Under the pieces are notes generated by a model. It had not been told where the DNA came from. It was given only the letters and a program-made list of their open reading frames with translations, and did not search any database. This document shows, piece after piece, positions 1-19,796 of a stretch of DNA of 64,000 nucleotides (within the stretch, counting starts at the first letter, position 1; every line of letters begins with the position of its first letter). Source of the DNA: Bifidobacterium breve (GTDB lineage Bacteria > Actinomycetota > Thermoleophilia > Solirubrobacterales > Solirubrobacteraceae). The stretch lies in NCBI GenBank assembly GCA_945878865.1, contig CAMCUD010000019.1, forward strand, positions 1 through 64,000. The letters are read 5' to 3'. Position numbers and translations under genes: made by a program.

Positions 1-31
1 TGTGCCGACGGCCCGCGCGGTCGTCGGCACA
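1..31. terminator. Strong hairpin at the left edge, probable terminator of an upstream gene
   Basis: TGTGCCGAC at 1-9 pairs perfectly with GTCGGCACA at 23-31, and the stem continues inward (one G-T pair) to about 13 bp around a short GC loop. No T-run follows, which is usual for terminators in high-GC actinobacteria. It probably ends transcription of a gene left of the window and isolates the signal peptidase gene that starts at 84. Confidence 0.5.
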
Positions 32-83: not shown

Positions 84-656
84 ATGCCCGCACTGAACTA
101 TGCGTTCCCCCTCGAAGAAGAACCCCGCATCCCGGGCCGCGCGCAGCGCGGCTTCTGGCGCGGTCTGAACTGGCTTCTCACGATCGCGCTCGTCGCGACT
201 TTCGCCGCGATCGGCTACTGCGGCCTCGAGCAGATCCGACCGACCATCAGCCGGTCGGACAGCATGCGTCCCCACAGCAAAGCCGGGGACCTCATCCTCA
301 CCCGCTACGTCCCGGTCAACACCGTCGAACCGGGCGACATCGTCACCTTCATCGACTCCACCCGCCACGGCGACCAGACCACGCACCGCCTGGTCTCCAA
401 GCGCCCCGTCAAGGTCGGCGACCTCGTCATCGCCTACGACATGGTCACCAAGGGCGACGCCAACCAGGACCGCGACAAGCAGTGGCGCATCGACGCCAAC
501 GGCAAGGTCGGCAACGAGGTCGTCGTCATCCCCAACGGCGGCCGCGTCGCGAACTGGCTCAGCTCCCCGATCGGCCGCGGAACCATCGGGGCGCTCATCC
601 TCATCATCCTCGCGGCGTCCTGGCTAATCGGACGGCAGCGCAGGAGCATCGCGTGA
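84..656 (+). CDS. SipW/ER-type signal peptidase I (190 aa)
   Basis: Membrane serine protease of family S26 that removes signal peptides from exported proteins. A hydrophobic segment lies at about residues 29-47 and a second at about 165-183. The box SDSMRP (58-63) carries the nucleophile Ser60 (family consensus SGSMEP). The general base appears to be His101 in the motif THRL, where bacterial LepB has lysine. A Ser-His dyad is the mark of the SipW/archaeal/ER subgroup. KGDAN (123-127) matches the conserved Asp box. The TGA stop overlaps the GTG start of the Kelch protein by four bases, so the two are probably translationally coupled and the neighbour is the likely substrate. SipW enzymes typically serve one or a few neighbouring substrates. 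Inferred: dedicated peptidase for the downstream surface protein. Confidence 0.85.
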   Translation: MPALNYAFPLEEEPRIPGRAQRGFWRGLNWLLTIALVATFAAIGYCGLEQIRPTISRSDSMRPHSKAGDLILTRYVPVNTVEPGDIVTFIDSTRHGDQTTHRLVSKRPVKVGDLVIAYDMVTKGDANQDRDKQWRIDANGKVGNEVVVIPNGGRVANWLSSPIGRGTIGALILIILAASWLIGRQRRSIA

Positions 657-3600
657 CCAAGTCGCCGTCCCGCCCGAGGCTGCTCGCGGCGCTCGCCATC
701 GTGGTCGCCCTCCCGGCGATCATCGGCGGTACCTGGGCGGGGCTTACCGGCACGACCCAGACGATCGACAACCGATGGGCGTCGATCACGATCCTGCCAC
801 CGCAGAACACCACGCCACCGCAGATCACCGCCGGCCCCGGTGCCGACACCGCCCAAGCCGACACCGGCGCCTGGGACGGCGACCCGACCGGCTTCACGTT
901 CCAGTGGCAGCGTTGCAACGCGACGGGCAGCTCCTGCCAGAACATCCCGGGCGCCACGACCGCCACGTACACACCAGCGGGCCTCGACGACATCGTCGCG
1001 GCCCGCCTCCGGGTGCAGGTCACCGCCAGCAACGCCGCCGGCCCCGCCACGGTCGCCTCGGCGCCGACCGTGCGGCCGTCCATCACTCCGACCACGCCGC
1101 CCGCGCTCACCGGCACACCCACCGCCGGGCAGACGCTCACCCTCACCAGCGGCACGTGGGCGATCGACGACACGCCAGGCGCCGTCACCTACCTGCGCTG
1201 GGAGCGCTGCGACAGCAACGGCGAGAACTGCGTGCCGCGGCCGCCGAGCACCGAGGGCGTGTATACCACCGATCCCGCCCTCGCGCTGACCTCTGAGGAC
1301 ACCGGGCACCGCATCCGCGTCATCGCGCTGCGCGTCGCGCCGACCGGGCAAGGCATCCGCTACGCCGAGCAGGTCGCCAACGAACTCTCCGCGGCCATCG
1401 GGCTCGCGCCGGTGAACACCGGTCCGCCGGAGGTCCGCGACAGCCAGGACGCGCAGATCACGGGCTCACCGTTTGTCACCGACACGCTGCGCGCCAGCAC
1501 CGGCACCTGGGCGAACCAGCCGACCAATTACACGTACCAGTGGCAGCGGTGCGACATCGCGGCCAGCAGCTGCGCGCAGATCGACGGCGCGACCTCCGAG
1601 AACTACCAGCTGGTCAGCAGCGACTACGGGCACCGCATCCGCGTCGAGATCACCGCTAGCAACGCGTACGGGCAGACCAGCGAGATCAGCCCGCCGACGG
1701 CGATCGTCGCCGTCCGCGACCCGATCAACACCGACCCTCCGACGATCAGCGGCAGCACCGTCGTAGGGGGGACGCTCAGCGCCACCACCGGTACCTGGCT
1801 CGGCGCGAACCTGACCTACGCCTACCAGTGGCAGCGCTGCGATAGCGCTGGCGCGAACTGCACCACGATCGCGGGAGCCACCGGCAGCAGCTACACCACG
1901 GCGTCGCCGGACATTGGCAATCGCGTCCGCGTTCGCGTCATCGCGACCCAGAACGCGCGCTCAAGCCAGGCGACCTCGGCGGCGACCTCGACCATCACCA
2001 CGCCGCCCCCCGTCAACACGACCCCGCCCGACATCACCGGAGCCACGCAGACGGGGGCGACGCTCACCGCTACTCGAGGGGTCTGGCAGAACAGCCCCAC
2101 CGACTACGCGTACCAGTGGCAGCGCTGCGACACCAATGGGGCCAACTGCCAGGACATCGGCAGCGCCACGTCCCTGACGTACACGATCGCCGCCGCCGAC
2201 GTAGGCAAGCGCCTGCGGTTCAACGTCACGGCCACCAACTACGGCGGGTCGGCCACCGCGTCGGCGCTGACGGGCACGGTCATCGCCGCTTGGCAGCTGA
2301 CCGGGGCATTGACGTCAGCCCGCAGCGAGATGGCCAGCGCCCTGCTCCCCGACGGGCGCGTCCTGGCCATCGGCGGATCGAACGGCAGCACCGTGCTGTC
2401 GTCCACCGAGCTCTACAACCCGCAGACGAACACGTGGACCACATCGGGCACGATGGTCACCGGACGCTTCGACCCGACAGGCGACTTTCAGACACCCGTC
2501 CTTCCCGACGGCCGCGTCCTCGTCGCCGGCGGCTACACGCAGGGAAGCAGCGTCGCTACGACCTCCAGCGAGATCTACAACCCGACGACGGGCAACTGGA
2601 ATGCTGGCCCGCCGATGAGCCAACGCCGCGCCAGCTACGCGTGGATGATCCTGCCCGACGGACGTGTCCTGGTCGCTGGCGGCAGCGGCGACCCCGGCGG
2701 CACAAGCTCAACCGGGTCGGCGGAGATCTATGACCCGCAGTCCAACAGCTGGAGCGCGGCCGCCCCGATGAACGCGCCGCGATACAACGCGGCATTTGCC
2801 CGCCTCCGCGACGGCCGTCTGCTTGTCGCTGGCGGCGCGAACGGCTCCTCGTTCCTGGCTTCGGCGGAGATCTACGACCCCGAGACGAACACCTGGACGT
2901 CGACCGGCTCCCTGCCACAGCAGCGCGGGTTCATCGGCGGGTCGACCACCGTTCTCCCCAACGGCAAGGTCCTCGTCCACAGTGCAGCGACATCGAGCGG
3001 CGCCCCGACCAACGAGGTGTACGTCTATGACCCCGCCGCGGGCACCTGGTCGACCGCCCCGTCACTCGGCACGGCACGATGGCAGACAGGGCAGGCCATC
3101 GCGCCTGATGGACGGGTCATCGTTGTCGGTGGCATCGGCGCGTCAGTGACCGCGACGACAGAACAGCGCGACCCGACCAGCGGGGTGTGGACCGCCGCGA
3201 ACCCGCTGAACGTCGCGCGCCGGATCGCCGGTGTCCAACGACTCGCCGACGGGCAGATCCTCGCGTTCGGCGGCATCGCCGCGTCCGCGCGCACCGCCAC
3301 CTCAGAATCGCTCTCGCTCGGCGTCGGGCAGGCCCCCTCCAACGGTGCTGTCCCGACGATCGCCGGGACAGCCGCCTACGGCCAGGTGCTGCGCGTCAGC
3401 GGCGGCAGCTGGACGGACGCCCAGCGCTACGCCTACCAATGGCAACGCTGCGAGACCGGACCGACGAACTGCCAAGACATCGCCGCGGCAACCTGGGGCC
3501 GCTACACCGTCACGGAAGCCGACTTCGGCAAGGCGCTGCGCGTCAAGGTGACCGGCAGCAACCCGTTCGGCTCCACGACCGTTACCACGGCGACCACCAC

Positions 3601-5611
3601 CGCGATCTCCTCCGCGTGGTACCTCACCGGCGCGCTGTCGACCCCGCGGTCGCAAGCGCAGGCCGCTCGCCTCGACAGCGGCAAGATCGTGCTCGCTGGC
3701 GGGACCGACGGAACGACCGCACTTCGCAGCGTCGAGACGTACGACCCCGCCACGAAGACCTGGACGACGACCAACGGCGCGCTGACCGCAGACCACGTCG
3801 GCACGACACTCAACGGCGCCGCGCCGGTCACACCCGACGGGCGCGTCGTCATCGCCGGGGGCGCCAACCAGGCGCAGACCGCCGGAACCGCGGTCACCGA
3901 CGTGTACAACCCCAGCACCGGCACATGGTCGGCGGCAGCACCGATGGCGCAAGCGCGCACCTACTCCGCGCAGACCGTCATGGCCGACGGACGGGTCCTC
4001 GTCGCCGGCGGCAACACCGGGGGCGGCTCGACCAGCCTCGCCAGCGTCGAGGCGTACAACACGAAGACAAACACGTGGACGACCCTCGCTCCGATGGCCG
4101 CCGGACGCTCCGGCGCCGCAGCCGTGACCCTCGCCGACGGCAAGATCCTCGTCGCCGGAGGCACAACCACCCAGGGCGTCGCGCTGTCCAGCGCCGAGCT
4201 CTACAACCCGCAGACCAACACGTGGACCCCGACAGGCGCAATGACCGCGGCGATCTACATCCCGCAGATGACGCTCCTGTCCGACGGACGGGTCCTCATC
4301 GGCGGTGGCCGCGCGACGAACAACGCCGGAAGCGGCACCGCGACGGCGATGATCTACGACCCCGCCACGAACACGTGGACGGCCGCCGCCTCGATGACCA
4401 CCGGCCGCGCCGTCGGCTCGCTGCACACCCTGCCCGACGGGCGGGTGCTCGCAGTCGCCGGACACAGCGGCTCCGGCGGCTCACCCGTGCCCCTGACCAG
4501 CGTCGAGATCTACAACCCGACCTCGAACAGCTGGAGCGCGTACGACGGCCTCAACAACGCGCGCTGGCACCAGGCCGGCGTCGACCTCGCCGACGGCTCG
4601 ATCATGACCATCGGGGGCCTGAACGCCTCCGGGGCACGGATGGCCAGCGTCGAGCTGCACACCGTCAACGTCACGTCAGCACCGGCCGACACCGTCGCGC
4701 CGAGCCTCTCGACCACCAGCCCCACCGTCGGGAGTCCCATCACCGTGAGCGCGGGGGCATGGTCCGGCGCGCCGCGGTTGAGCTACCAGTGGCGCCGCTG
4801 CGACATCACCGGCGCGAACTGCGTCGACATTCAGGACGCCGCCTGGCCGCGCTACACGCCGATCGCCGCGGACTCCGGCAGCCGCCTGCGGGCGATCGTC
4901 ACTGCGACCAACGCCGCGGGCGCCGCGACCGTCGCCTCGTCGACCACCACCGCTGTCGCCTCCACGCCCCCATCGTTCCTGCTCAACAGCGGCGCCGACA
5001 GTTCGGCGGACCTGACCGAGCACGGCGTGCTCTCCTCAGAGCCCGGTCGTTTGGCCGCTTCGACGGCGCTAACACTCAATGCGTCGACTGACACCTTCGC
5101 CACGGCGCCGTCCTACGGCTTCACCGGAGCCTCGTTCACCGTCGAGGCCGACGTGCGCTTCGCGGGCAACGGCCAGAACAGCACGATTCTCGCGCAGGGC
5201 ACGGCAGCTATTGACTCGACGGTGTTCTTCGGAACCTCGGGCAGCAACATGTACTGCTCCTTCTATGGCGATGACGCGGCCGTTGCCCTGGCGGCTGATG
5301 ACCTCGGCGGCAACTGGCATCGCTGGTCGTGCACCTTCAATGCGTCGACGAAGCAGCAGACGCTCTATCGCGACGGCGTCGTCAAGGCGCAGCGCACCGC
5401 CACAGCAGCTCCGACGACCGCAGGCCTCCTGCACATCGGCATCGATCCTTGGTCGGCAAAATCGGCCGCCCGCCCCTTCAATGGCCGCATCGACGATGTC
5501 GCCATCTACAACAGCGTGCTCCCGACGTCGCGCGTCGCCGCACATGTGGGGTCGCCGACGGAGATCTCTGCCGACGCGCCGCGCCGGTGGTATCGCTTCG
5601 GCGACGGCTGA
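653..5611 (+). CDS. Giant secreted surface protein: Ig-like repeats, two seven-bladed Kelch propellers, LamG-like C-terminus (1652 aa)
   Basis: The frame is open from base 2, but the start is placed at GTG 653, which overlaps the signal peptidase stop by four bases and gives an immediate export signal (residues 8-30). After it comes a TasA/camelysin-like stretch. Five Ig-like repeats follow (about 50-545), each with the motif YQWQRCD or a close variant. The first Kelch block (about 546-890) contains seven LPDGRVLVAGG-type blade motifs. One more YQWQRC repeat separates it from a second block (about 986-1337), again with seven motifs. A last repeat (YQWRRCD) and a LamG/concanavalin-like domain (about 1473-1652) close the protein. 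Such domains bind carbohydrate or protein ligands; the function here is inferred as adhesion. Base composition looks less GC-rich than the core genes to the right. Confidence 0.88.
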   Translation: MTKSPSRPRLLAALAIVVALPAIIGGTWAGLTGTTQTIDNRWASITILPPQNTTPPQITAGPGADTAQADTGAWDGDPTGFTFQWQRCNATGSSCQNIPGATTATYTPAGLDDIVAARLRVQVTASNAAGPATVASAPTVRPSITPTTPPALTGTPTAGQTLTLTSGTWAIDDTPGAVTYLRWERCDSNGENCVPRPPSTEGVYTTDPALALTSEDTGHRIRVIALRVAPTGQGIRYAEQVANELSAAIGLAPVNTGPPEVRDSQDAQITGSPFVTDTLRASTGTWANQPTNYTYQWQRCDIAASSCAQIDGATSENYQLVSSDYGHRIRVEITASNAYGQTSEISPPTAIVAVRDPINTDPPTISGSTVVGGTLSATTGTWLGANLTYAYQWQRCDSAGANCTTIAGATGSSYTTASPDIGNRVRVRVIATQNARSSQATSAATSTITTPPPVNTTPPDITGATQTGATLTATRGVWQNSPTDYAYQWQRCDTNGANCQDIGSATSLTYTIAAADVGKRLRFNVTATNYGGSATASALTGTVIAAWQLTGALTSARSEMASALLPDGRVLAIGGSNGSTVLSSTELYNPQTNTWTTSGTMVTGRFDPTGDFQTPVLPDGRVLVAGGYTQGSSVATTSSEIYNPTTGNWNAGPPMSQRRASYAWMILPDGRVLVAGGSGDPGGTSSTGSAEIYDPQSNSWSAAAPMNAPRYNAAFARLRDGRLLVAGGANGSSFLASAEIYDPETNTWTSTGSLPQQRGFIGGSTTVLPNGKVLVHSAATSSGAPTNEVYVYDPAAGTWSTAPSLGTARWQTGQAIAPDGRVIVVGGIGASVTATTEQRDPTSGVWTAANPLNVARRIAGVQRLADGQILAFGGIAASARTATSESLSLGVGQAPSNGAVPTIAGTAAYGQVLRVSGGSWTDAQRYAYQWQRCETGPTNCQDIAAATWGRYTVTEADFGKALRVKVTGSNPFGSTTVTTATTTAISSAWYLTGALSTPRSQAQAARLDSGKIVLAGGTDGTTALRSVETYDPATKTWTTTNGALTADHVGTTLNGAAPVTPDGRVVIAGGANQAQTAGTAVTDVYNPSTGTWSAAAPMAQARTYSAQTVMADGRVLVAGGNTGGGSTSLASVEAYNTKTNTWTTLAPMAAGRSGAAAVTLADGKILVAGGTTTQGVALSSAELYNPQTNTWTPTGAMTAAIYIPQMTLLSDGRVLIGGGRATNNAGSGTATAMIYDPATNTWTAAASMTTGRAVGSLHTLPDGRVLAVAGHSGSGGSPVPLTSVEIYNPTSNSWSAYDGLNNARWHQAGVDLADGSIMTIGGLNASGARMASVELHTVNVTSAPADTVAPSLSTTSPTVGSPITVSAGAWSGAPRLSYQWRRCDITGANCVDIQDAAWPRYTPIAADSGSRLRAIVTATNAAGAATVASSTTTAVASTPPSFLLNSGADSSADLTEHGVLSSEPGRLAASTALTLNASTDTFATAPSYGFTGASFTVEADVRFAGNGQNSTILAQGTAAIDSTVFFGTSGSNMYCSFYGDDAAVALAADDLGGNWHRWSCTFNASTKQQTLYRDGVVKAQRTATAAPTTAGLLHIGIDPWSAKSAARPFNGRIDDVAIYNSVLPTSRVAAHVGSPTEISADAPRRWYRFGDG

Positions 5612-5742: not shown

Positions 5743-7443
5743 CTAGCGCACGGTGACCCGGATTGTCTGGGTGCCCGACGGCAGCCCGAGCGACACGGTC
5801 CAGGAACCCGGCTTGAGTCGCGCGCCGAACAGGCGGCGTCCGACCGAGAACCGGTGCGTTCCCGCCGCCATGCCGACCGTTCTGCGGCTCGTCAGCGTTC
5901 GACAGCGCGCGGCGCACGCGCGGCCACGGAACGTGACGGGGACCTTCGCAGGCTTTTGAAGCGTCACCGTGACGGCCGCGGCACGAGCGCCTCGAGCCGC
6001 CGACACGGCGACCCGCTCACGTGAGGGCCCGTCGACCTTCGGTTGGGGCGAGCGCTTCGGCTGATCTGCGGGCGGCGCATCCGCCGCCGGAGGCAAAGGA
6101 CCGACAGGGGGACCCGGATCGACCGGCGCGGCCGGCGGGCCCGGGTCGACCGGAGGCGGCGGGTCCTCGGTTGGCGGCACCGGGGGCGCGGTGAACATCG
6201 CGTCGAGCTCGTCCATCGCCCCCGACGCGTCAAGCCGACCACCCGTCTTGGCAAGCCCTTGCAGTGCGGGCACCGGGTCGGCGCTCTGCAGGATCGCCGC
6301 CTTAACCTGCGCCACGGTCGCCGTCGGATGGCGGGAGAACAGCAGTGCGGCGACCCCGCTGACGTGCGGGGCAGCCATCGACGTGCCGCTCTTCGGGATC
6401 CCACCGACCTCGTAACTCGTCCCCGACGACGTCGCGGAGATGTTCACCCCCGGCGCGAACAGGTCCACCACCGTGGATGACCGGTTCGAGAAGGACGCGG
6501 GCTGGTCATGGATGTCTGACGCGCCGACGCAGATCACGTTCGGCTCGGGCGTGTTGCATGGGTAGTTGCCTGCGGCGTCGCCGCCGGCGTTCCCGGCGCT
6601 GAAGACGAACAGCACGTCCGGGTGGGCGCGGATCGCGTCGGTCTCAGCTTGCGACGGGGAGGACCCGCCGAAGCTGCCGTTGACCACCCGGGCGTGCGAC
6701 GCGGCGTAGTCCAGGCCGACCGCGGTGCTGCTACCCCCGGGCCACAGCGCCTTGACCGGCAGGCCCGTGGCGCGCGGTGCCATGCCGATCGTCCCGGAGC
6801 CCTCGCGGCTGATCATGATTCCCATCACGTGGCTGCCGTGCCCGCCGTTGACGTCAAGCCCCGCCGGGCCGCCGGTTTCCAGGTCGATGCCGGGCAGCAG
6901 CGCCTGCCCCAGGTCAGCCGGTGGGTCGTCCCAGTTCTCGTACCGCTGCGTGAGGTTGCCGGAGAACCCGACGTTCATGCGGCCGATCCCGGTGTCGACG
7001 GCCGCAACGGTCACGCCCTCGCCGAGCGACCGGCGCCACGCGCCTCGAATGTCGATCGTCGAGGCGTCCGGGACCGGCTCGTACGTCGAGATGTCCAGCG
7101 ACTGTCCCTCGCCGCTGAGCTCCCACTGCGATCGCCACCCCGCGCCGGGGAACGTCGGCCACCCGTCGGCCATGTCGATGCGCCGGCCGGGGGAGGGCTG
7201 CACCCACCGCACATCCGGGTCGGCTTGCAGCTCCTCGAGCGCGGATGCGTCGCCGTCGACGACGTCCACGTTCAGGCGGGCAGACCGGGCCTGCAGGGTC
7301 ACCGCGGCGTCCCGGCGGCTGTCCGCGCGCTCGGCGGCGCTCGTGTCGGGCTCGTAGCGCACGTCGAACTGCTCAGCAGCAGCTGAGGACGCGAAGGTCG
7401 CCATGGAGGCGAGCGATACAGCGGTCAGGAACACCCGACGCAT
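5743..7443 (-). CDS. Secreted subtilisin-like serine protease, family S8 (566 aa)
   Basis: Exported peptidase. The ATG at 7443 begins a clear signal peptide (MRRVFLTAV..., cleavage near SSAAA-E), so the 41 upstream in-frame codons were rejected. An inhibitor I9-like propeptide is likely at about 22-90. The catalytic triad is visible: Asp150 in VAAVDTGIG, His202 in GGHGSHVMG, Ser355 in GTSMAAPHVSG. The oxyanion Asn is probably in FSAGNAGGD. A Pro-rich linker near residues 430-475 leads to a C-terminal beta-type domain with a Cys pair (ACAARC). It faces the Kelch gene tail to tail and is divergent from the RHS gene. It may mature or shed neighbouring surface proteins; that is inference. Confidence 0.92.
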   Translation of the reverse strand: MRRVFLTAVSLASMATFASSAAAEQFDVRYEPDTSAAERADSRRDAAVTLQARSARLNVDVVDGDASALEELQADPDVRWVQPSPGRRIDMADGWPTFPGAGWRSQWELSGEGQSLDISTYEPVPDASTIDIRGAWRRSLGEGVTVAAVDTGIGRMNVGFSGNLTQRYENWDDPPADLGQALLPGIDLETGGPAGLDVNGGHGSHVMGIMISREGSGTIGMAPRATGLPVKALWPGGSSTAVGLDYAASHARVVNGSFGGSSPSQAETDAIRAHPDVLFVFSAGNAGGDAAGNYPCNTPEPNVICVGASDIHDQPASFSNRSSTVVDLFAPGVNISATSSGTSYEVGGIPKSGTSMAAPHVSGVAALLFSRHPTATVAQVKAAILQSADPVPALQGLAKTGGRLDASGAMDELDAMFTAPPVPPTEDPPPPVDPGPPAAPVDPGPPVGPLPPAADAPPADQPKRSPQPKVDGPSRERVAVSAARGARAAAVTVTLQKPAKVPVTFRGRACAARCRTLTSRRTVGMAAGTHRFSVGRRLFGARLKPGSWTVSLGLPSGTQTIRVTVR

Positions 7444-7785
7444 ACGGGGTGTGTCGGCCCCTGCAGGCGTGGGACCTTCGTGACGGACGGGAATCTGGAC
7501 AAGCCACTGAGCGCCCGGAGCGCGTTGCGTCAAGCGCCATCCGCATTGAAGTGCGGGCTGGCTCATCGGCTGCCGTCGTGAGATCGCCAGCTAGGGCCTC
7601 GTCCCCGCGGGCCAGGATGCGATCGAGGCGGCGAGGCCGCGTGCTTGACAGACGCCCTCGACACCGTGGCGAAAGCGCATGGGTCGGCCTTGTACAGGGT
7701 GTCGAATGCACAGCGCTCGGGGGAGCCCGACCATTAGCGGGGGTCTGGGCACCTGCCCCGGCGACGATTCGATCTCGGGAGCTTG
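7444..7785. other. 342-nt divergent intergenic region (subtilisin / RHS)
   Basis: No coding frame here looks real. It must hold promoters for the leftward subtilisin and the rightward RHS gene. TTGACA at 7645-7650 resembles a -35 box but no matching -10 box lies 16-18 bases downstream, so no promoter is called. GGGAG at 7777-7781 is a ribosome binding site four bases before the ATG at 7786. Confidence 0.5.
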
Positions 7786-10700
7786 ATGTCTAGGGCAACG
7801 CTGTGGGGCTGGCCGGGGCTGGCCCTTGCGGTCACGGTTTGGCTGTTCAGTGCTACTGGTGCCGCGGGGCAGGCTCCACTGGGCGGAGCGGCCCTAAGCC
7901 TGGCTCCCAATGACCAGGCGGCGAGCCCGCGGCCCTCCAGTGAAGCCGTAAGCAAGGTGACCCAAGCGGCGCAGACGGAGATCCAGCGGCGCGAGGCCGA
8001 ACTGTCTAGCGCGGCGAAGCGGGCGGAGCGTCGGGAGTCGCGTGGACGTTTCAAAGGCCTTGGCGGTCGTGCGGCGGTTGATGTCGGGCGACGGTTCTTT
8101 CCGGTGCTTCAGCGGCCGTCGTGGGCACCAGTGGACGCCCGTGCGGGGGTGACGCCCCTGCGGTACCTCGACGACCACACGTTCGTGGCCGTAGATGGTG
8201 CGGGCGCGGATAGTCGCCGGGCGGTCGTCGTGTCCGACACGCCGTTCTGGGGCGAGAACCGAGAGGGACAAGTCGAGCGTCTCGACGTCTCGCTTGTACC
8301 TCAGGGAGAGGCCGTTGTAACGAAGAACGCGCCCGTCAACGTTCGGATCGGGCGCTCAGCGACCGACGGGGTTGAGTTCGAAGACGCCGCGGTCCGGTTG
8401 CGGCCGACCGTCGACGCGCCGGAGCCTCCGACGGCGGTCGTCACCGAGGACCGTGTGACCTATACGAATCTGGCGCGCGACACGGACCTTGCGATCTCGC
8501 CGCTGCCGAACGGCGTGCAGACCCACCACATCCTTCGCAGCGAGGCGGCACCTGAGATCTTGTCATTCGACGTCGCGTTGCCTGACGGCGCTCGAATCGA
8601 GCAGGGCGAGCACGGGACACTCAGCATCGTCGGCATGAAGGAGCAGATCGGGACGATCACTGCGCCGATCGCTGTCGACGCTCAGGGCCAGACGGTGCCG
8701 GCACGCCTCCGCCTGGACGGTCAGCGGGTGTCACTCGAGGTGGAACACCGCTCGGCGGATCTCGCGTATCCGATCATGGTCGACCCCAACTTCGTCCTCG
8801 ACCAGTACCAGGATGACGGTGCCGGTCTTCCGAACCAGGGGTGGGGCTTTCACAGTCCGTGGCCGACGAAGTTCTCGGGAGAGTTCCGGACGATCTCCCC
8901 GACGGTCACGGAGAAGTATGTGTACGCCAACGGTGGTGCGTACATCAACCACACGGAATGGGGGTGGCTGGAGTACGACGCCCCGCACCTGGCGGCTGGC
9001 GGCCAGGGGTTCGTCTACAAGACGCAGTTCTACAACGTCTCGCACAGCCCGCAGAACACCTGCATGACGCTGGGAATCTACGACCGCGAGGCACAGACCT
9101 GGCCCTCGACGGGCTCACATCACGCCTACAACATCGGTGCGAACACGGGGCCCTTGGTGCAGTGCGGCGCCCTGGCGGGATGGGTCGTCGACGTCTGCGG
9201 TGACGGCTACGCCGCGTCGGGGAACTGCTGGAACGCGCCCGCCCGCTCGCAAGCGAACATGCAGATCTGGGCATGGGGGAACGGCACACGCGCCAACGAC
9301 GCGTGGGTCGGCGTCGGCAGCACCGCCGTCTTCCTCCGAGACAACGACAACCCGGTCATCACGACGACATCGGTGCCCGGCGGCGGGCAATGGCACAACC
9401 CCGGCCCTCTCGAGCAGCAACTGAACTTCACGATGAGCGCGTACGACCCCGGACTCGGGATGAAGAGCACCTCGGTCCGCGTCGACACCACGGATCTCCC
9501 CAGCACCCTCGGCTGCACTGGAACCGTCGACAATCCCTGCCCACGCGACCAGCCACTCGCAAAGACCCACCAGCTCGCCGACGGCGAGCATGACGTCACC
9601 TTCTCGGCCACGGACATCCTCATGAACACGACCACCGGCACGACGCAGAAGGTCCGGATCGACCGCGGCGCGCCCCAGGTCAAGTTGAGCGGGCCCCTCT
9701 CAGCACGCATCGGTGACTCCGCCACGTCCAGCGCGACTCGCGCGGTCCGGGATGCCACAAAGCTGACAATCGACATCACCGACGGGACCGCGTCGGCACC
9801 AAGATCTGGGATCAAGACCGCCTCCTTCACCCTGACCCGCGACGGGACTACGCCCCCGAGTGGCGTCGTGCCGGCAGACATCCCGCAATCTGAGTGCCCA
9901 ACGCCCGGCGTGTGCACCGCCAAGCAACGGACCCTCACCACACCGTCACAAGCAGGCCTGTACCTCCTCACGATCAACGCCCAGGACTGGGCGGGAAACA
10001 GCATCGCCCCGAAGACCATCTACTTCCGGGTCGCCGCCGGCAAGATCACCTCGGTCGTCGAAGGGCAACGATCGAGCCGCTACGTCACGCTGAAGGCAAC
10101 CCCTCCGGCAGGGGCACAGAACGTGGTGTTCGAGTACCGCGCCAACGGCGGCGCGTGGGGGTCGCTACCCGAGAGCATGACCAAGCAGGGTCCCCTCGAT
10201 CCCGTCACCTGGCCCGTCGCGACCAGCAAGACACTGGTCTGGGACATCGTGCGCCAGTACACCGGCAACATCGGTACCTCAACGAACGGCGGGTCGACCG
10301 ACGCCACCGGTGTGGTCGGCCTGGTCAACGGCGGGATCGAGGCGTACAAGCCCTTTGAAGTCCGCGCGCGCTTCCCGAACGGCACAGCCGATCCGGTAGA
10401 TGACCCGACCAGTGATGAATTGCGGATGGAGTACGACCCGTCAGGCGACGGCACGAGCAACTCCCGGGAGACGGTGGGCCCCGGGAGCGTCGACCTTCAG
10501 ACCGGAGCATTCTCGTTGTCTTCGACCGATGTGTCCGTCGACGCGTACCTGACGAATCTGGAGCTCACACGGACGTACAACTCCCGTACGCGACTGCAAA
10601 CAGGCGCGGCTGTAGGCCCGCTGGGACCGGGATGGACGCTCGGGATCCCATCGATCGAGGGATCGGAGTACCAGAAGGTCCACTACGAACCGCCGGTGGT

Positions 10701-13700
10701 CGAGAACATCACGTGGGACGACGACTCAGGCGACACAGACACCGTCGTCGAACCCGGCTACGCCGTCGTGACCATGGGTGACGGGTCAGAAATCGTGTTC
10801 TCCCAGACCGGCGATGCCCCCGCCAACTTCACGCCCGAAGCCGGCCTGGAGGACCTGCGCCTCGAGCGGACCGCCGGGACTGCCGAGGCTCCGACCGAAT
10901 TCGCCCTCACCGACGAAGACGGACAAGAGGTCTTCACGTTCAAAGCCAACGGCACGCCGAAGACCTACGAGATCTCCGCCGTGAAGTCCCTGGGCACTAA
11001 CGCTCGAGAGCTCAAGTATCAGTGGGGGGTGTCCGGCGGAAAGCGGGTCTTGTACCGGATCGTCGCGCCTGCGGCAACCGGCGTGACCGGTTGCGACAAG
11101 CCGGTCAACCAGACGCCGCCGGTGTATCCGGAGAACGGGTGCCGCTGGCTGGACCTCGAGTACTCGAATGGGCTCTTGCAAGCGGTCAAGTTCCGCGCGT
11201 ACAACGCCGCGGGCTCAATGGAGACGCGGACGATGGCGTCGTACGCATATTGGCCCGACGGGCGCCTGAAGTCCATGACGGACGCCGCAGGTCTAACCAC
11301 CGAGTACGAGTACCAGACGGTCGCTGGCGCCGAGCCCAAGCCGACCCTGTTGAACAAGATCGACCCGCCAGGCCCCGACCTGCCATGGACGATCAACTAC
11401 CAAAGCGAGGCGACAGACAAGGACCCCGGCCGGCTCCTGAACGTCCAGCGCCCGACGCTCGCGCCCGCAACAGGAACGGCCACGACAAAGCTCGACTACG
11501 AGATCCCGCGCTCCAACCAAGCACCCGACAACGGGCCCTGGGACATGCGACCCGCCACGTTGCAGGACCTCGGACAGAACGACGTCCCGATCGACGGCAC
11601 CGCGATCTACACGGCCGACGTCTCGACCTCAACCAACCCGCAGGACGCCACGGTCCACTACCTCAACGGGCAGGGACGCACCGTGAACACCGTCAGCCGA
11701 GGCCCCGATGACGCATGGGCAAAGGTCTCGATAACGGAGTACGACGCGTACGGCAACATCACCCGGCAGATGACCCCGGAGAACCGGCGGGCAGCCAAGG
11801 AAGCGACGCTGACAGCCGGCGAAACACGCGCCGAACGAGCGCGGGCGCTCAGCACCCTCCGAGGGTATGAGACCAACGATGCAGGGTCGCGCATGGCCTG
11901 GGAGATGGGGCCACGCAAGGACGTTCGCATCTCCGGGCAGACCGGCACCGTTCCGGCCCGACGTCACACCGTGTACGTCTACGACGAGGGCCGCACGGTC
12001 GGAGACACCAAGAACTACAACTTCCCGACGACGACCACCGTCAGCGCCTTGAAGGGCACCGACTACAGCACGCCTGCGGCCTTGATCACCGACGATGTGG
12101 ATCGACGTGTCAGCAAAGCCACGTACGACTTCGCTAAGCGCGTCCGGCTCGAATCCGTCACGGACCCCGGCTCGAGTCCGAACCTGAACCTGCGAACAAC
12201 GACCGCCTACGACGACCAGGGCCTCGTCACCGAGGAGCGGATGCCTCGCAACCCCGGTGGGGGGGATGCTTCGGCACGGCGCACCGTGTACTACACCGGC
12301 GACAACAGCGCCTCTGTCACTGAGTGCAGAAACAAGAAGCACTGGGCCGGATTCATCTGCCAGCACCGGCCGGCAGCGCAGCCCGGCACCACCGGACTCC
12401 CCGAACTCCCCATCACGACCTACGAGTACAACGCGCTTGGGGAGGTCTCGAAGGAAACCGACATCGTCTCCGGCACACCGTCGGCGACCAGGACGACGAC
12501 AACGACCTTTGACACTCTCGATCGCCCGAAGCGCGTCGCGACCACCAGCTCAGGCACAAACCCAGGGGCGTCGCTCCAAGACATCGAGACCGTGTACGAC
12601 GCCGCGACCGGCCGAGTCACCGAGACACAGCAGAAGACCGGCACGACGACCGTACGTGCAATCAAGCGTGAGTACGACGCGCTCGGACGCATGTTCAAGT
12701 ACACCGACGCTGACGGCCTCGTCACGACAACGTCGTTCGACATCCTCGACCGTCCGGTCGCCATCAGCGACACTAAGAACGGTTCACCGCAGCAGGGAAC
12801 TCGGACGCTGCAGTACGACACTCGCACGGGTGCCGTCGCCGGAGTGACGGACCCTGCGCTCGGCCAGTCCAGTGGCTCATCATCGATCGTGGGCGTGTAT
12901 GACCTTGACGGCCGGCTGACCTCCCAGACGTTCACCAAGTCCGGGGTCAAGATGGGCCTCGCCTATGACGCCGAGGGCGCGGTACGTGCGAGGGAGTACA
13001 CCAGCGGGGCAACGCAGCTCCACCGCTCGGAGGCGGTCCGCTCGATCCACGGAGAGATCCTCGAACAGACGTCCCGCAAGACCGGGCAGGTCCAGACGAA
13101 CTCGGCGTACGCCTACGATGCGGCCGGGCGTCTCGTCAAGTCTGATGGGACGGTTGACGGGCAGTGCACCGTTCGTCTGTACGCCTACGGGCACTCGACG
13201 GAGACCACGCCGGCGGGTGCCGACAGCAACCGCACTCGGCTCACGACACGGGCGCCGGCAGGTGGCGGCGCGTGCGCAACCAGCGGTGGGACCGCGACCG
13301 ACTACACGCATGACATCGCGGACCGGATTACCGGCTCCGGCATCGCCTACGACGCGTTCGGACGGATCACCTCGCTGCCTGCATCGTCGGCAGGCGGCGC
13401 CCAACTGACAACGAGCTACTACGTCAACGATCTCGCCCGCACGATCACACAGTCGGGGAAGACCACGACCATCGCACTCGACCCCGCCGACCGCGTAAGG
13501 ACCCGCGACATCAGCGGCACCGACAGCTACACCGAGACGGTGCACTACGCCGCCGACGGCGACGAACCCGCGTTCACTCTTCGCGGGACCGCGATGACGC
13601 GCGAGATCAGCGGACTCGACGGCGACCTGGCCGCGATCAGCACACCCAACGACGACGTCAAACTGCAGCTCACCGACGTCCACGGCGATCTCGCCGGAGA

Positions 13701-15036
13701 AGCGGACAACACCCCAACCCCGGCACCACCGGCCTTCCTGGTCGGAGGAGACGAATTCGGCGTCCCGAGGCCGATCCCCGGCGGCCCACCAATCATCAAG
13801 ACCGGCGTCACGTCAGCCGCCACCGGCCCGCCCGTCGCTTCGTCGCTGTCCGTCACACGTCCCGCAGTGCAGAACGGCGACCTGCTGCTAGCCAGCATCA
13901 TCGCCGGAGAGAACGGCACCATCACGCCACCTTCAGGCTGGACCGCCGTCACCGGATCAGAAACCGGAGCCCACGATGCGCGTCTGAAGCTCTACTACCG
14001 CTACGCGACCGCAAGCGAACCCTCGAGCTACACCTTCTCGTTCTCAACCTCCTCGCAGCACATCGCCAGCATCACCACGCTGCGCAACACGGCTTCCTCG
14101 AATCCGATCGACGTCATCGCGACCGCAAGCGGGACAAGCAACTACGCACCGTCACCGTCCGTCACCCCAACCAAGCACAACGCCGCAATCCTCAGACTCG
14201 CCGCGAGCTCAAGCCCGTGGCCAACGGTCGAGACGGGCAGCGAAAGCGGCCAGTACCTCGGCGGCCTTGAATCGTGGGCGTTCGGAACGCCGCCTATCCT
14301 CGACTGGGACGAATACGCATACGACGAGAGCTGGGGCTTCGAGCTCAGCGCGGCCGGTTCTCTCACCATCCGCGTGGCCGGCAAGAACAGCCCGAGCGGC
14401 GCCCTCAACGTTGTAAGCCAGCCTGCAGACATGGGAGCGCCGACCGACTCCGTTACTGCCGCAATCGCCGCCAGCAATACGAACGCGCTCAGTCGCTCGA
14501 GCTACCGCTACCTCGCCGGCAAGCAACGCCACACGACCACCGACACCGGAGTCATCGAGATGGGAGCACGGATCTACGTCCCACAACTCGGACGATTCCT
14601 CCAGCCCGATCCCGTCTACGGCGGATCCGCAAACCGGTACGACTACGCGTCCCAAGATCCCGTCGGTAACAACGACCTCGACGGCCGCGCCTGCCGCTCT
14701 CGCGACAAGATGTGCAAGCGGGCCAAGGCGGTGCACGCCCGCAACATGAGACTCGCGCGACAGATCGCCAACAACGCTGCGCGAATCGCGAAGCGGATCC
14801 AGCGCTCGCAGGCATCAAAGGACTCGAAGCGTGCCGCGCGCGCCGCGGCCAGAATCGCCAAACGCAGCGTGCGGCAGATTGCGCGGGCAATCACGGAAGG
14901 AATGAAAGTGAGTCCGGTCGGATACCTCGGGTGCAACACGGTGCATGCGTGGTTGGACAAGGACAACTCCGTAAGCGACTCAGTGAAAGACGCGTTGATC
15001 GAATGCACCGGCCTCGGCATGTTCGTGGACCCATGA
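7786..15036 (+). CDS. Giant RHS/YD-repeat polymorphic-toxin-like secreted protein (2416 aa)
   Basis: RHS/YD proteins build a hollow beta-cocoon that encloses a C-terminal effector. ATG 7786 was chosen over TTG 7783 because GGGAG lies just upstream. A signal peptide covers residues 1-28. The N-terminal half (about 30-880) has adhesin-like beta regions. A DUF6531-like start of the RHS region (VDLQTGAFSLSSTDV) lies near residue 900, followed by many YD repeats (YDALGR, YDAAGRL, YDAFGRI). The RHS core signature (ARIYVPQLGRFLQPDP, ending YDYASQDPVGNNDLDGR) is at about 2260-2300. A 230-residue beta-rich domain (about 2003-2235) interrupts the core. The tail (about 2300-2416) is a Lys/Arg/Ala-rich helical region ending in a hydrophilic 40-residue stretch with two Cys. 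The stop overlaps the next gene by four bases. The effector activity is unknown. Confidence 0.9.
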   Translation: MSRATLWGWPGLALAVTVWLFSATGAAGQAPLGGAALSLAPNDQAASPRPSSEAVSKVTQAAQTEIQRREAELSSAAKRAERRESRGRFKGLGGRAAVDVGRRFFPVLQRPSWAPVDARAGVTPLRYLDDHTFVAVDGAGADSRRAVVVSDTPFWGENREGQVERLDVSLVPQGEAVVTKNAPVNVRIGRSATDGVEFEDAAVRLRPTVDAPEPPTAVVTEDRVTYTNLARDTDLAISPLPNGVQTHHILRSEAAPEILSFDVALPDGARIEQGEHGTLSIVGMKEQIGTITAPIAVDAQGQTVPARLRLDGQRVSLEVEHRSADLAYPIMVDPNFVLDQYQDDGAGLPNQGWGFHSPWPTKFSGEFRTISPTVTEKYVYANGGAYINHTEWGWLEYDAPHLAAGGQGFVYKTQFYNVSHSPQNTCMTLGIYDREAQTWPSTGSHHAYNIGANTGPLVQCGALAGWVVDVCGDGYAASGNCWNAPARSQANMQIWAWGNGTRANDAWVGVGSTAVFLRDNDNPVITTTSVPGGGQWHNPGPLEQQLNFTMSAYDPGLGMKSTSVRVDTTDLPSTLGCTGTVDNPCPRDQPLAKTHQLADGEHDVTFSATDILMNTTTGTTQKVRIDRGAPQVKLSGPLSARIGDSATSSATRAVRDATKLTIDITDGTASAPRSGIKTASFTLTRDGTTPPSGVVPADIPQSECPTPGVCTAKQRTLTTPSQAGLYLLTINAQDWAGNSIAPKTIYFRVAAGKITSVVEGQRSSRYVTLKATPPAGAQNVVFEYRANGGAWGSLPESMTKQGPLDPVTWPVATSKTLVWDIVRQYTGNIGTSTNGGSTDATGVVGLVNGGIEAYKPFEVRARFPNGTADPVDDPTSDELRMEYDPSGDGTSNSRETVGPGSVDLQTGAFSLSSTDVSVDAYLTNLELTRTYNSRTRLQTGAAVGPLGPGWTLGIPSIEGSEYQKVHYEPPVVENITWDDDSGDTDTVVEPGYAVVTMGDGSEIVFSQTGDAPANFTPEAGLEDLRLERTAGTAEAPTEFALTDEDGQEVFTFKANGTPKTYEISAVKSLGTNARELKYQWGVSGGKRVLYRIVAPAATGVTGCDKPVNQTPPVYPENGCRWLDLEYSNGLLQAVKFRAYNAAGSMETRTMASYAYWPDGRLKSMTDAAGLTTEYEYQTVAGAEPKPTLLNKIDPPGPDLPWTINYQSEATDKDPGRLLNVQRPTLAPATGTATTKLDYEIPRSNQAPDNGPWDMRPATLQDLGQNDVPIDGTAIYTADVSTSTNPQDATVHYLNGQGRTVNTVSRGPDDAWAKVSITEYDAYGNITRQMTPENRRAAKEATLTAGETRAERARALSTLRGYETNDAGSRMAWEMGPRKDVRISGQTGTVPARRHTVYVYDEGRTVGDTKNYNFPTTTTVSALKGTDYSTPAALITDDVDRRVSKATYDFAKRVRLESVTDPGSSPNLNLRTTTAYDDQGLVTEERMPRNPGGGDASARRTVYYTGDNSASVTECRNKKHWAGFICQHRPAAQPGTTGLPELPITTYEYNALGEVSKETDIVSGTPSATRTTTTTFDTLDRPKRVATTSSGTNPGASLQDIETVYDAATGRVTETQQKTGTTTVRAIKREYDALGRMFKYTDADGLVTTTSFDILDRPVAISDTKNGSPQQGTRTLQYDTRTGAVAGVTDPALGQSSGSSSIVGVYDLDGRLTSQTFTKSGVKMGLAYDAEGAVRAREYTSGATQLHRSEAVRSIHGEILEQTSRKTGQVQTNSAYAYDAAGRLVKSDGTVDGQCTVRLYAYGHSTETTPAGADSNRTRLTTRAPAGGGACATSGGTATDYTHDIADRITGSGIAYDAFGRITSLPASSAGGAQLTTSYYVNDLARTITQSGKTTTIALDPADRVRTRDISGTDSYTETVHYAADGDEPAFTLRGTAMTREISGLDGDLAAISTPNDDVKLQLTDVHGDLAGEADNTPTPAPPAFLVGGDEFGVPRPIPGGPPIIKTGVTSAATGPPVASSLSVTRPAVQNGDLLLASIIAGENGTITPPSGWTAVTGSETGAHDARLKLYYRYATASEPSSYTFSFSTSSQHIASITTLRNTASSNPIDVIATASGTSNYAPSPSVTPTKHNAAILRLAASSSPWPTVETGSESGQYLGGLESWAFGTPPILDWDEYAYDESWGFELSAAGSLTIRVAGKNSPSGALNVVSQPADMGAPTDSVTAAIAASNTNALSRSSYRYLAGKQRHTTTDTGVIEMGARIYVPQLGRFLQPDPVYGGSANRYDYASQDPVGNNDLDGRACRSRDKMCKRAKAVHARNMRLARQIANNAARIAKRIQRSQASKDSKRAARAAARIAKRSVRQIARAITEGMKVSPVGYLGCNTVHAWLDKDNSVSDSVKDALIECTGLGMFVDP

Positions 15037-17353: not shown

Positions 17354-19666
17354 CTAGATGTAGTACCAGCCGTAGGGGAGGACGCAGATCAGCGATGAGC
17401 TGCCGTCTTGCCACGTCCACCGGCGCGGCGTTCCGCCGACGTTGCGGCAGTTCTGGATCCGGCGCTGCAGATCACGGCGCACCGCCGCGCGCTGGCGGCG
17501 CAGCCTCGCCGCGGCACGTCGGTCGCGAGCGCGGCTCTCTGCTCGACGAAGGCGCTGGCACTGCGCCTTGGAGATTGTCCGGATGCTGCCGCGGCGGGTG
17601 TACTCGTTGCCGTCGTCGTCGGAGGCGGTGAGGGTGAAGCGGTAGCGGCCGCCGCCGTACTTGCAGGTCCAGTCGAACGTGATGGACCCGTCGGTTTGTG
17701 GTCCCCATCGGAAGTTGCGGACCTGCTCGCGGCCGCCGCGGCGAAGTGACAGCCGGAGGTACGCGTAGGCGTTGGTCTTGACGATGAGCTTCGAGTATCC
17801 GGGGGTGCGACTGCTGCGGATCCGATACGACCGCGTTCTGACCTTCAGACCGTCGACGGGCGGGCCCTTGATGCGGAACCGGACGGGGTCGCTCTCTGTC
17901 GAACGGCCGTCCGGAAGGCGACGCACGACCGACCACTGGTAGCTGCCAGGCCATAGCGGGTCGTTGAACTGTGCGCGCGCGATGCCGTCTTTGATCTTGA
18001 ACTGCGCCTTCTGGTCGGCCGGCTCGTATCCCTTACGCGTGCTCGAGGGTTCGTCCGCGGTGTCGTCGTAGTAGTCGTCGGCGCTGTCGACGTCGGCCTG
18101 TTCGTCGGTCGTGGGCACCCACGTCCCGTCTGCGGCGACCAGTGCAAGGACCTTGCCTTCACGGTCGCTGAGGTGCAGCTCGTCGGTGTAGCGCTGAGAA
18201 GTGGGCCACGCGAAGACCGGACGCCGTCCCTCCAGCCAGCCCGATGCCGCGCCGAACGCCGGGAAGGGCGACACGAGGGGCAGCAGGGGCATACGGACCT
18301 GTGCTGTCGTGACCACCCTTCCGACGCTGTTGCGCACGGCAGCGCAGAGCGTCGCCTCGGGCGATTCGGGCATCTCGAACCGGTAGACCTTGGAGTAGGG
18401 CCCACCGGGGAGATCGTCGCTGGCCACGGACGCCTCACGATCGAGGCTGGGGCATGTCGTGCCGCTCACCACGTCCACGGCCAGAGCAGCAGCCTCCTCG
18501 GTGGTTCCCTGAACCGTGAACGCGCGGGCTTCCCTGCGCAGGTACGGCGAGGTGTCACCGGAGAACACGATCGTTGCGTTCATCGACCGGATGCCAACCG
18601 TTGTCTCGCTGCGCGCCGATGCGCTCGCCGACTCGGACTTAGCGACGTACGCGCATACTCGGTAGGTCCCTGCCGTGCTCGGGATGAACGCGGTCTTCAA
18701 CGAGAATGCCCCCTCGATGTAGCGGCCGTAGGCGGTCAACGCGTCTGCCCCTGGCGGTCGCCCGCCGAACGACGGGGCACAGCCGTCGGCCGTCGTGGCA
18801 TAGGCGTACAGGTAGCGCGGGACCTCGGTGGTCCCCGAGATCGTCACGTCGACGGCGCGCTGGTCAACCCGGTTTGCGCCAAAGTCCACTGCCAGTGTCG
18901 CGGTGCTCGCGCGCGCCACGAGGAGGGCTTCTGAGATGCCGTCGGGGGAGCCATCCTCGCTGTCAGCGATGTAGACGCAGACTCGGTAGGCGCCCGCGTC
19001 CGGTGGGAAGAACGCCGAAGCTTCGGAGAACGCGCCGGCATCGATATAGCGGCCGCTGGAGTACCACAGCTGCGGGGCGCCTAGCGGCCGGTCGGCGTAG
19101 CGCGCAGTGCATGTCCCGGAGGTGACGAAGCCGTAGAGATACCGCGACACCTCGGTGTTGCCGGTGATCGTCACCGGAATGCTGCGGTTCTCCGTCGGGT
19201 CAGCTCCGAACGTGATGGCAGCAGAGGCGGCGTTCCCGCGTGCCGTGAACGTGGCTTGCCCGGTCGCAGCTGGAGTAGATGTCTCGCTGGATGCTAGGTA
19301 GGCGCAGACGCGATACAGCCCGGTCTTCGACGGTGTGAACGCGGTGGCTTGCGAGTAGGTCCCGCTGGAGACGTAGCGGCCGCCGCCGTACCAGAGCTGC
19401 GGCTCGCCGGGGGCGCGGTCCGCGTACCGGCTGGCGCAGCTTCCTGCCCGCGTCACGTAGCCGAAGAGATACCGGGCGGACTCAGTCGTTCCTCCGACCG
19501 TCATCGACACGCTGCGGTCCTCGACGGGGTCAGCGGCCACTGAGATCGAGACGGTCGCCGCCCGAGCGGGCCCGGCGGCCATGAGCAGGGCGACGAGGGC
19601 CAGCAGGCAGGAAAGCGAGGCAAAGCCCGGAGCGGTCCGAGATCCCGAGGAGCGAGGAAGGGACAT
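17354..19666 (-). CDS. Secreted repeat protein with four Ig-like units and a basic coiled C-terminal region (770 aa)
   Basis: ATG 19666 gives a clear signal peptide (about residues 14-37, ending GPARA-A). Three close repeats of about 108 residues follow, marked by GTTESARYLFGYVT, YADRxxGxPQLWY, GRY and YRVCAYxAxSE, and then a fourth, diverged copy. Each close unit has Cys pairs that could form a disulfide. After about residue 440 comes an Fn3-like beta region with an acidic loop (SADDYYDDTADE). A second beta domain follows, then a basic helical segment of about 45 residues rich in Arg/Ala, and a Cys-containing end (LICVLPYGWYYI). No enzyme signature. Likely an exported structural or adhesive protein; role unknown. 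Confidence 0.8.
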   Translation of the reverse strand: MSLPRSSGSRTAPGFASLSCLLALVALLMAAGPARAATVSISVAADPVEDRSVSMTVGGTTESARYLFGYVTRAGSCASRYADRAPGEPQLWYGGGRYVSSGTYSQATAFTPSKTGLYRVCAYLASSETSTPAATGQATFTARGNAASAAITFGADPTENRSIPVTITGNTEVSRYLYGFVTSGTCTARYADRPLGAPQLWYSSGRYIDAGAFSEASAFFPPDAGAYRVCVYIADSEDGSPDGISEALLVARASTATLAVDFGANRVDQRAVDVTISGTTEVPRYLYAYATTADGCAPSFGGRPPGADALTAYGRYIEGAFSLKTAFIPSTAGTYRVCAYVAKSESASASARSETTVGIRSMNATIVFSGDTSPYLRREARAFTVQGTTEEAAALAVDVVSGTTCPSLDREASVASDDLPGGPYSKVYRFEMPESPEATLCAAVRNSVGRVVTTAQVRMPLLPLVSPFPAFGAASGWLEGRRPVFAWPTSQRYTDELHLSDREGKVLALVAADGTWVPTTDEQADVDSADDYYDDTADEPSSTRKGYEPADQKAQFKIKDGIARAQFNDPLWPGSYQWSVVRRLPDGRSTESDPVRFRIKGPPVDGLKVRTRSYRIRSSRTPGYSKLIVKTNAYAYLRLSLRRGGREQVRNFRWGPQTDGSITFDWTCKYGGGRYRFTLTASDDDGNEYTRRGSIRTISKAQCQRLRRAESRARDRRAAARLRRQRAAVRRDLQRRIQNCRNVGGTPRRWTWQDGSSSLICVLPYGWYYI

Positions 19667-19796
19667 GGTGTGAGCGAGGCCGCGATGCGGCGACACGGGG
19701 ATTGAACCAGAGTGCTTGAGCGCTTGCGTGCCGTGGCGCAGATCCCTGTCCCACGGCGGCTGCGCCCGCCCCCCGGGGTGTCGGAGTGTGGGCGCC

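What the first reader, a model, noticed from the sequence alone, without database searches (positions are those of the whole stretch)
84..5611. Dedicated SipW-type peptidase coupled to a giant double-propeller surface protein
Seen: the peptidase has Ser60 and His101 (THRL) instead of Ser-Lys and overlaps by four bases with a 1652-residue protein holding seven YQWQRC-type repeats, two blocks of exactly seven Kelch motifs and a LamG-like end. Known: SipW matures TasA/TapA, the neighbours it is coded with. Inference: a private maturation pathway for a large adhesin or fibre component, on a mobile island.
Basis: partly seen in the sequence, partly recalled or inferred. Interest (0 to 1): 0.65.

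Follow-up and report, generated by a model that had tools for sequence, protein, structure and literature searches.

The report
Export peptidase with giant propeller protein
A bacterium carries an export-cutting enzyme of the kind that makes biofilm fibres, and the gene joined to it codes for an unusually large propeller-shaped surface protein that probably uses that enzyme and may decorate such fibres.

Summary
Window 84-656 codes for an ER-type (SipW-like) signal peptidase with Ser60/His101/Asp125. It overlaps by four bases a 1652-residue protein with seven YxWxRC Ig-like repeats, two seven-bladed Kelch propellers and a LamG end. The Ser-His dyad is the rule for this family, not an oddity: 39 of 39 aligned relatives have it. 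Elsewhere in the class the peptidase nearly always (36 of 37 loci) sits beside proteins with a common SipW-type N-terminus, which the Kelch giant also carries (26.3 bits; best of 677 controls 5.0). So this is a TasA/camelysin-type fibre cassette whose variable extra-cargo slot holds a giant double propeller; other loci carry Ig- or LamG-type proteins of up to 537 residues there. 'Private' is doubtful: it is the only SipW found in the assembly, and a camelysin-like protein on another contig has the same N-terminus. 'Mobile island' has no support. The peptidase is a new member of a known kind; the cassette is a new variant. Whether the giant caps a camelysin fibre is open.

The parts
1..31 (+). 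GC-rich hairpin, 13-bp stem, in the 83 bases before the peptidase; in genome G039 a similar hairpin lies just after the camelysin stop codon
   Evidence: window:1-83 folds at -28.1; G039 gap at -46.2; no shuffle control done
84..656 (+). SipW-like (ER-type) signal peptidase I, 190 aa, Ser60/His101/Asp125
   Evidence: TIGR02228 55.8 bits, cut-off 51.85; 39 of 39 relatives keep the three residues
653..656 (+). four-base stop/start overlap (GTGA); ATGA at the same junction in G039
653..5611 (+). Kelch/Ig/LamG giant, 1652 aa
   Evidence: 42% identical to the G039 relative in the same place
653..739 (+). SipW-type signal, residues 1-29, ending TWA before GLTGTT; cleavage site inferred by alignment only
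   Evidence: 26.3 bits to the SipW-neighbour N-terminus model
803..2287 (+). five N-terminal Ig-like repeats with YxWxRC motifs (residues about 51-545)
2291..3322 (+). first seven-bladed Kelch propeller (residues 547-890)
3323..3616 (+). Ig-like repeat between the two propellers (YQWQRC at residue 928)
3617..4672 (+). second seven-bladed Kelch propeller (residues 989-1340)
4673..4972 (+). Ig-like repeat after the second propeller (YQWRRC at residue 1378)
5087..5536 (+). LamG/concanavalin-like domain (residues 1479-1628)

Best explanation
This is most of a camelysin/TasA-type extracellular-fibre cassette. An ER-type signal peptidase of the SipW group (Ser-His mechanism, by family) is coded in overlap with, and most likely removes the signal from, a giant Ig/Kelch/LamG protein. 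That protein fills the variable cargo slot of such operons and probably acts outside the cell as an adhesin or matrix component displayed with a camelysin-like filament. Shown here by computation: family membership of the peptidase, the three invariant catalytic-type residues, the conserved gene order with four-base overlap in a second genome, the SipW-type N-terminus of the giant, and the TasA-like fold of the neighbouring camelysin in G039. Inferred: actual cleavage by this peptidase, co-expression, and the adhesive or matrix role.
For: TIGR02228 match above cut-off. Ser, His and Asp kept in 39 of 39. G039 has camelysin - SipW - Kelch giant in this order with an ATGA overlap; SipW 43%, giant 42%, camelysin 60% identical to the G000 counterparts, the last on contig C51. 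The G039 camelysin passes Pfam Peptidase_M73 (25.0 bits, cut-off 22.5); the family profile's best solved relatives are TasA 5of1 and 8aur (E 0.0026 and 0.003), and the model's best folds are TasA (8aur Z 8.9, 3.2 A over 130 residues). 36 of 37 other SipW loci have a same-strand neighbour with a shared N-terminus. A model of 53 such N-termini, with both Kelch giants and both their camelysins held out, scores P0002 at 26.3 bits; the best of 677 control ORFs is 5.0 and the best of 400 shuffles 10.0. Left-out members score 12.3-94.5. Tryptophan sits before the aligned site, as in TasA, where it hinders LepB (PMC10269814, passages).
Against: The curated SipW-cargo model TIGR04088 finds neither giant and nothing in the genome. 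The G039 giant scores only 11.8 bits, little above the best shuffle (10.0). Split in halves, the model sees P0002 only through the part before the site (11.5 bits), not after it (-2.3 bits, rank 616). In G039 and C51 the residue aligned to P1 is Gln, unusual for any signal peptidase (recalled), so the exact site is unsure. The upstream gene of the window's own operon lies beyond the contig end. The tight cassette was found in two genomes only.
Confidence: 0.68

Rival explanations
1. The Kelch giant is an ordinary Sec substrate cut by the housekeeping LepB; its gene merely sits after the SipW gene, whose real substrate is a camelysin.
For: TWA before the site also fits the Ala-X-Ala rule of LepB; LepB is present (contig C15, L069:736-1347); the part after the site does not match the SipW-cargo model.
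Against: Other Ig-repeat proteins of the same genome have ordinary signals and score 5.0 bits or less on the same model; gene order and overlap are kept in G039; a second larger cargo after SipW occurs at other loci.
Confidence: 0.2
2. The peptidase serves a wider SipW regulon, with the camelysin-like protein of contig C51 as main substrate; the Kelch giant is one client of several. This is compatible with the main reading and differs from it in what the enzyme is chiefly for.
For: One full SipW in the assembly and one camelysin-like protein, on another contig, with the best SipW-type N-terminus of all four tested (38.2 bits).
Against: The true upstream neighbour on C19 is unread and could be a second camelysin lost at the contig end; only the giant is physically coupled to the peptidase gene.
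Confidence: 0.5
3. The Kelch blocks are catalytic radical copper oxidases (galactose oxidase/GlxA-like) exported by SipW.
For: Best folds are galactose oxidases (Z 31.9); weak match to GlxA, 143 bits against a cut-off of 800.
Against: No cysteine in either propeller and one or five histidines per block, so the Cys-Tyr cofactor (recalled) cannot form.
Confidence: 0.03

Closest known systems
tapA-sipW-tasA operon of Bacillus subtilis
   Same: SipW-type peptidase coded with its substrates, one a TasA-like fibre protein; TapA stop and SipW start codons overlap (PMC10151520, passages)
   Different: The overlapping partner here lies after SipW and is a 1652-residue Ig/Kelch/LamG protein; no TapA was looked for; the camelysin is read in G039 and on another contig, not in the window
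sipW-calY1-bc_1280-calY2 locus of Bacillus cereus
   Same: SipW with camelysins and an extra matrix protein, BC1280/CapP (PMC10151520 and PMC13082335, passages)
   Different: CapP is a chaperone-like protein with a DUF4047 motif and is transcribed apart from sipW; the giant here overlaps sipW and is made of propellers and Ig-like repeats
SipW loci with Ig-like or LamG cargo in the same class of bacteria (L042, L045, L094, L100 and others)
   Same: Peptidase beside a camelysin-like protein and, at some loci, a further SipW-type-signal protein after it, twice with the same four-base overlap
   Different: Their downstream cargo has 185-537 residues and no Kelch match among the nine tested
Kelch propellers of galactose oxidase and Keap1
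   Same: Propeller fold
   Different: Two propellers in one secreted chain, no copper-radical cysteine

Membership tests
ER-type signal peptidase I (TIGR02228, SipW/archaeal/SEC11 group) | score above the curated cut-off | tested here: met
   55.8 bits against 51.85
ER-type signal peptidase I (TIGR02228, SipW/archaeal/SEC11 group) | catalytic Ser and His, no catalytic Lys, conserved Asp | tested here: met
   39 of 39 Ser60, His101, Asp125; the genome's LepB differs at His and Asp
Bacillus SipW equivalog (NF046067) | score above the curated cut-off | tested here: not met
   31.9 bits against 190: SipW-like, not Bacillus SipW itself
SipW-cognate signal (TIGR04088) | match to the 34-position model | tested here: not met
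   No match for either giant, none in the genome
SipW-type N-terminus of this class (model made here) | score above all controls | tested here: met
   26.3 bits; best of 677 controls 5.0, best of 400 shuffles 10.0; the half after the site alone fails
Camelysin/TasA (PF12389), G039 neighbour | Pfam cut-off and TasA fold | tested here: met
   25.0 bits against 22.5; TasA ranks first by fold
Camelysin/TasA (PF12389), protein on contig C51 | Pfam cut-off | tested here: not met
   No Pfam match for the 419-aa form, though 60% identical to the G039 protein over the camelysin part
TasA-type operon | camelysin gene next to sipW in the window's own genome | tested here: inconclusive
   Contig ends 83 bases before sipW
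TasA-type operon | filament formation and SipW-dependent maturation | not testable with these tools
   needs experiments
Radical copper oxidase GlxA (NF052501) | curated score and Cys-Tyr cofactor | tested here: not met
   143 bits against 800; no Cys in the propellers

The most novel reading that the evidence does not exclude
The Kelch giant is the tip or base adhesin of a camelysin filament: after SipW cleavage its freed N-terminus acts as a donor strand that docks it on the filament, as the TapA N-terminus is proposed to do for TasA, so that camelysin operons in this class carry a swappable adhesin slot of which this is the largest form seen.
Probability: 0.2. Interest if true: 0.65.

Novelty: new variant of a known kind. 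Interest (0 to 1): 0.42.

Why it matters
TasA/camelysin fibres are known mainly from Bacillus (and, structurally, some archaea). If the third slot of these operons is a swappable SipW-dependent adhesin, the class would show how such fibres gain binding specificity, and the Kelch giant would be a large, distinctive client for testing what makes a protein SipW-dependent.

Tried and rejected
Radical copper oxidase: rejected for lack of cysteine in the propellers. Mobile island: six tyrosine-integrase hits (two in one frame of C53) lie on contigs C15, C17 and C53, none on C19; serine recombinases and transposases were not searched; among eight further window ORFs Pfam gave a subtilase, an RHS protein and a PLL-type domain only. 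Plasmid and phage collections: one weak hit each, a Natronorubrum signal peptidase and an unannotated phage record. Named genomes: only two Clostridia loci, not followed. PDB by sequence with the single peptidase: no peptidase among four hits.

A donor-strand role for the giant's N-terminus was tested through the half of the model after the cleavage site: P0002 -2.3 bits, rank 616; G039 giant 1.7 bits, rank 65. This counts against the novel case, although some true members also fail that half (left-out minimum -2.9).

A first automatic choice of training N-termini picked wrong stretches and was dropped. The 53 training N-termini come from a pattern plus 13 hand exclusions; left-out scoring shows that all 53 stand above the controls and shuffles. 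The 677 controls hold 571 distinct sequences, mostly mechanical ORFs, cut to 150 residues against 80-90 for the test proteins. Locus counts were 34 upstream and 13 downstream; one of the 13 (L105) is really upstream because its peptidase ORF was called too long, which gives 35 and 12, still 36 of 37 with either. The exception is L036.

Literature searches in the held library: SipW with Kelch, 0 papers; Thermoleophilia with signal peptidase, 0 papers (that class name is my guess for the organism, from no call); camelysin/Actinobacteria/SipW, two of three terms: 24 papers, 10 listed, none whose title or abstract start concerns this class; Kelch/surface protein/Solirubrobacter, two of three terms: 721 papers, 6 listed, not useful.

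Full report
What is there. The window is contig C19, bases 1-64000, of an unnamed 4.96-Mb assembly in 79 contigs. ORF 84-656 codes for 190 residues, ORF 653-5611 for 1652; they overlap by four bases. AlphaFold on the Kelch region (806 residues, two-row alignment) gave mean pLDDT 71 and a nearly all-beta model; block 1 matches galactose oxidase (Z 31.9, 2.9 A over 328 residues) and block 2 virginiamycin B lyase (Z 28.1, 2.5 A over 289). Foldseek's own top rows were six-bladed Kelch domains (designer proteins, Keap1) over about 290 columns (blade number recalled), so seven blades rests on the motif reading.

The peptidase. It passes the archaeal/SipW-type family model TIGR02228 (55.8 bits, cut-off 51.85) and falls far below the Bacillus SipW equivalog (31.9 against 190) and LepB-type (19.3 against 47) models. 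In an alignment of 39 ER-type sequences and the genome's LepB, Ser60, His101 and Asp125 are invariant in all 39. The Ser-His pair is therefore ordinary for this family. A whole-genome search found one such gene plus a weak second hit (20.8 bits, contig C15), which reads as LepB.

A second cassette. Of 121 family genomes, 21 hold a relative at E 1e-5, window genome included; of 399 genomes of the class, 18 at E 1e-15. Only G039 stands close (E 6e-49, 45% identity; the next is 1e-18). There the peptidase (L034:9102-9698) overlaps the following gene by ATGA. That gene codes for a Kelch/Ig/LamG giant of about 1,600 residues, 42% identical to P0002. Before the peptidase lies a 200-residue protein that passes Pfam Peptidase_M73, camelysin. 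Within the window's genus (3 genomes) only the window genome has the close form.

What the upstream protein is. A profile of 29 such proteins (14 of the 29 match Pfam Peptidase_M73 at E 0.01) finds TasA as best solved relative (5of1, E 0.0026; 8aur, E 0.003). The AlphaFold model (pLDDT 71, N-terminal part poor) has TasA first by Foldseek (8aur, E 1.5e-4, the only hit under 0.001) and by VIA-align (8aur Z 8.9, 5of2 8.1, 5of1 7.8); cannulae and archaeal bundling pili follow at Z 7.2 and 6.7, among viral capsid rows of similar Z. The window genome has one such protein, on contig C51, with a Gly/Ser-rich linker and a C-terminal extension, not beside a peptidase. In the window the contig ends 83 bases before the peptidase, inside which lies a 13-bp hairpin; G039 has a hairpin just after the camelysin stop. 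That the missing neighbour is a camelysin is inference.

Does the giant carry a SipW-type signal? I read the surroundings of 37 further SipW-type loci. 36 of 37 have a same-strand neighbour within 3.5 kb with a common N-terminus: a hydrophobic stretch, then a motif like FxAFSATTxNxGNxF, then GT-V. A model from 53 of them, with the window genome and L034 held out, scored the C51 camelysin 38.2, the G039 camelysin 34.5, P0002 26.3 and the G039 giant 11.8 bits; the best of 677 control ORFs had 5.0 and the best of 400 shuffles 10.0. Scoring each training member with its near relatives left out gave 12.3-94.5, median 67.4. Ig-repeat proteins of the same genome with ordinary signal peptides scored 5.0 or less or were not reported. 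Against this: the curated TIGR04088 model finds nothing, and when the model is cut at the presumed site P0002 scores 11.5 on the first half and -2.3 on the second. P0002 reads TWA-GL where TasA has a Trp before and a Phe after its site; both hinder LepB in TasA peptides (PMC10269814, passages). In the G039 and C51 proteins the matching stretch is VWQ-GL, so the exact cut is unsure.

The variable slot. About a dozen loci have a SipW-type-signal protein after the peptidase, 185-537 residues, two with the same four-base overlap (L042, L094). Of nine scanned, seven show Ig-like (six) or LamG (one) matches, several below the Pfam cut-off, two show none and none shows Kelch. The Kelch giant looks like an enlarged occupant of this slot.

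How it probably works. Signal cutting by SipW is the documented role of the Bacillus enzyme for TasA and TapA (PMC9674648, passages). TasA subunits join by an N-terminal donor strand, and the TapA N-terminus resembles it (same passages). By analogy the giant could dock on a camelysin filament through its N-terminus; the half-model test does not support this, so I keep it only as the novel case. Seven Ig-like repeats, two propellers (seven-bladed PLL lectins are among the fold matches, Z about 28) and a LamG end suit a binding or matrix role; this is inference.

Private or mobile? The peptidase is the only SipW found in the assembly and at least one more protein has the same kind of N-terminus, so 'private' is unlikely. 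No tyrosine integrase lies on contig C19.

Verdict. The peptidase itself is ordinary. The conserved coupling to a giant double propeller in two genomes, inside what looks like a TasA-type fibre cassette, is a new variant of a known kind; I found no paper joining SipW and Kelch in the held library.

Noticed in passing
L068:5480-6739 (contig C51 of the window's genome): Camelysin-like protein with a Gly/Ser-rich linker and a C-terminal extension of roughly 190 residues without Pfam match, on a contig that also codes for a probable single-strand-binding protein and an ATPase-like protein (names by eye).
   Followed up: partly
window 1-31: The assembly stops at a strong GC-rich hairpin just before sipW; strong hairpins also follow the camelysin gene at L034, L045, L048, L050 and L051 (no shuffle control), perhaps setting camelysin expression above that of the genes behind it.
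   Followed up: partly
window 5743-7566 and 7783-15036: A subtilase-family protease and a 2417-residue RHS-repeat protein lie next to the giant.
   Followed up: no
window 17354-19807: 817-residue protein with a weak PLL (PTX/LNS-like) domain match.
   Followed up: no
L036: The one SipW-type locus of 37 where no neighbour with the common N-terminus was seen.
   Followed up: no
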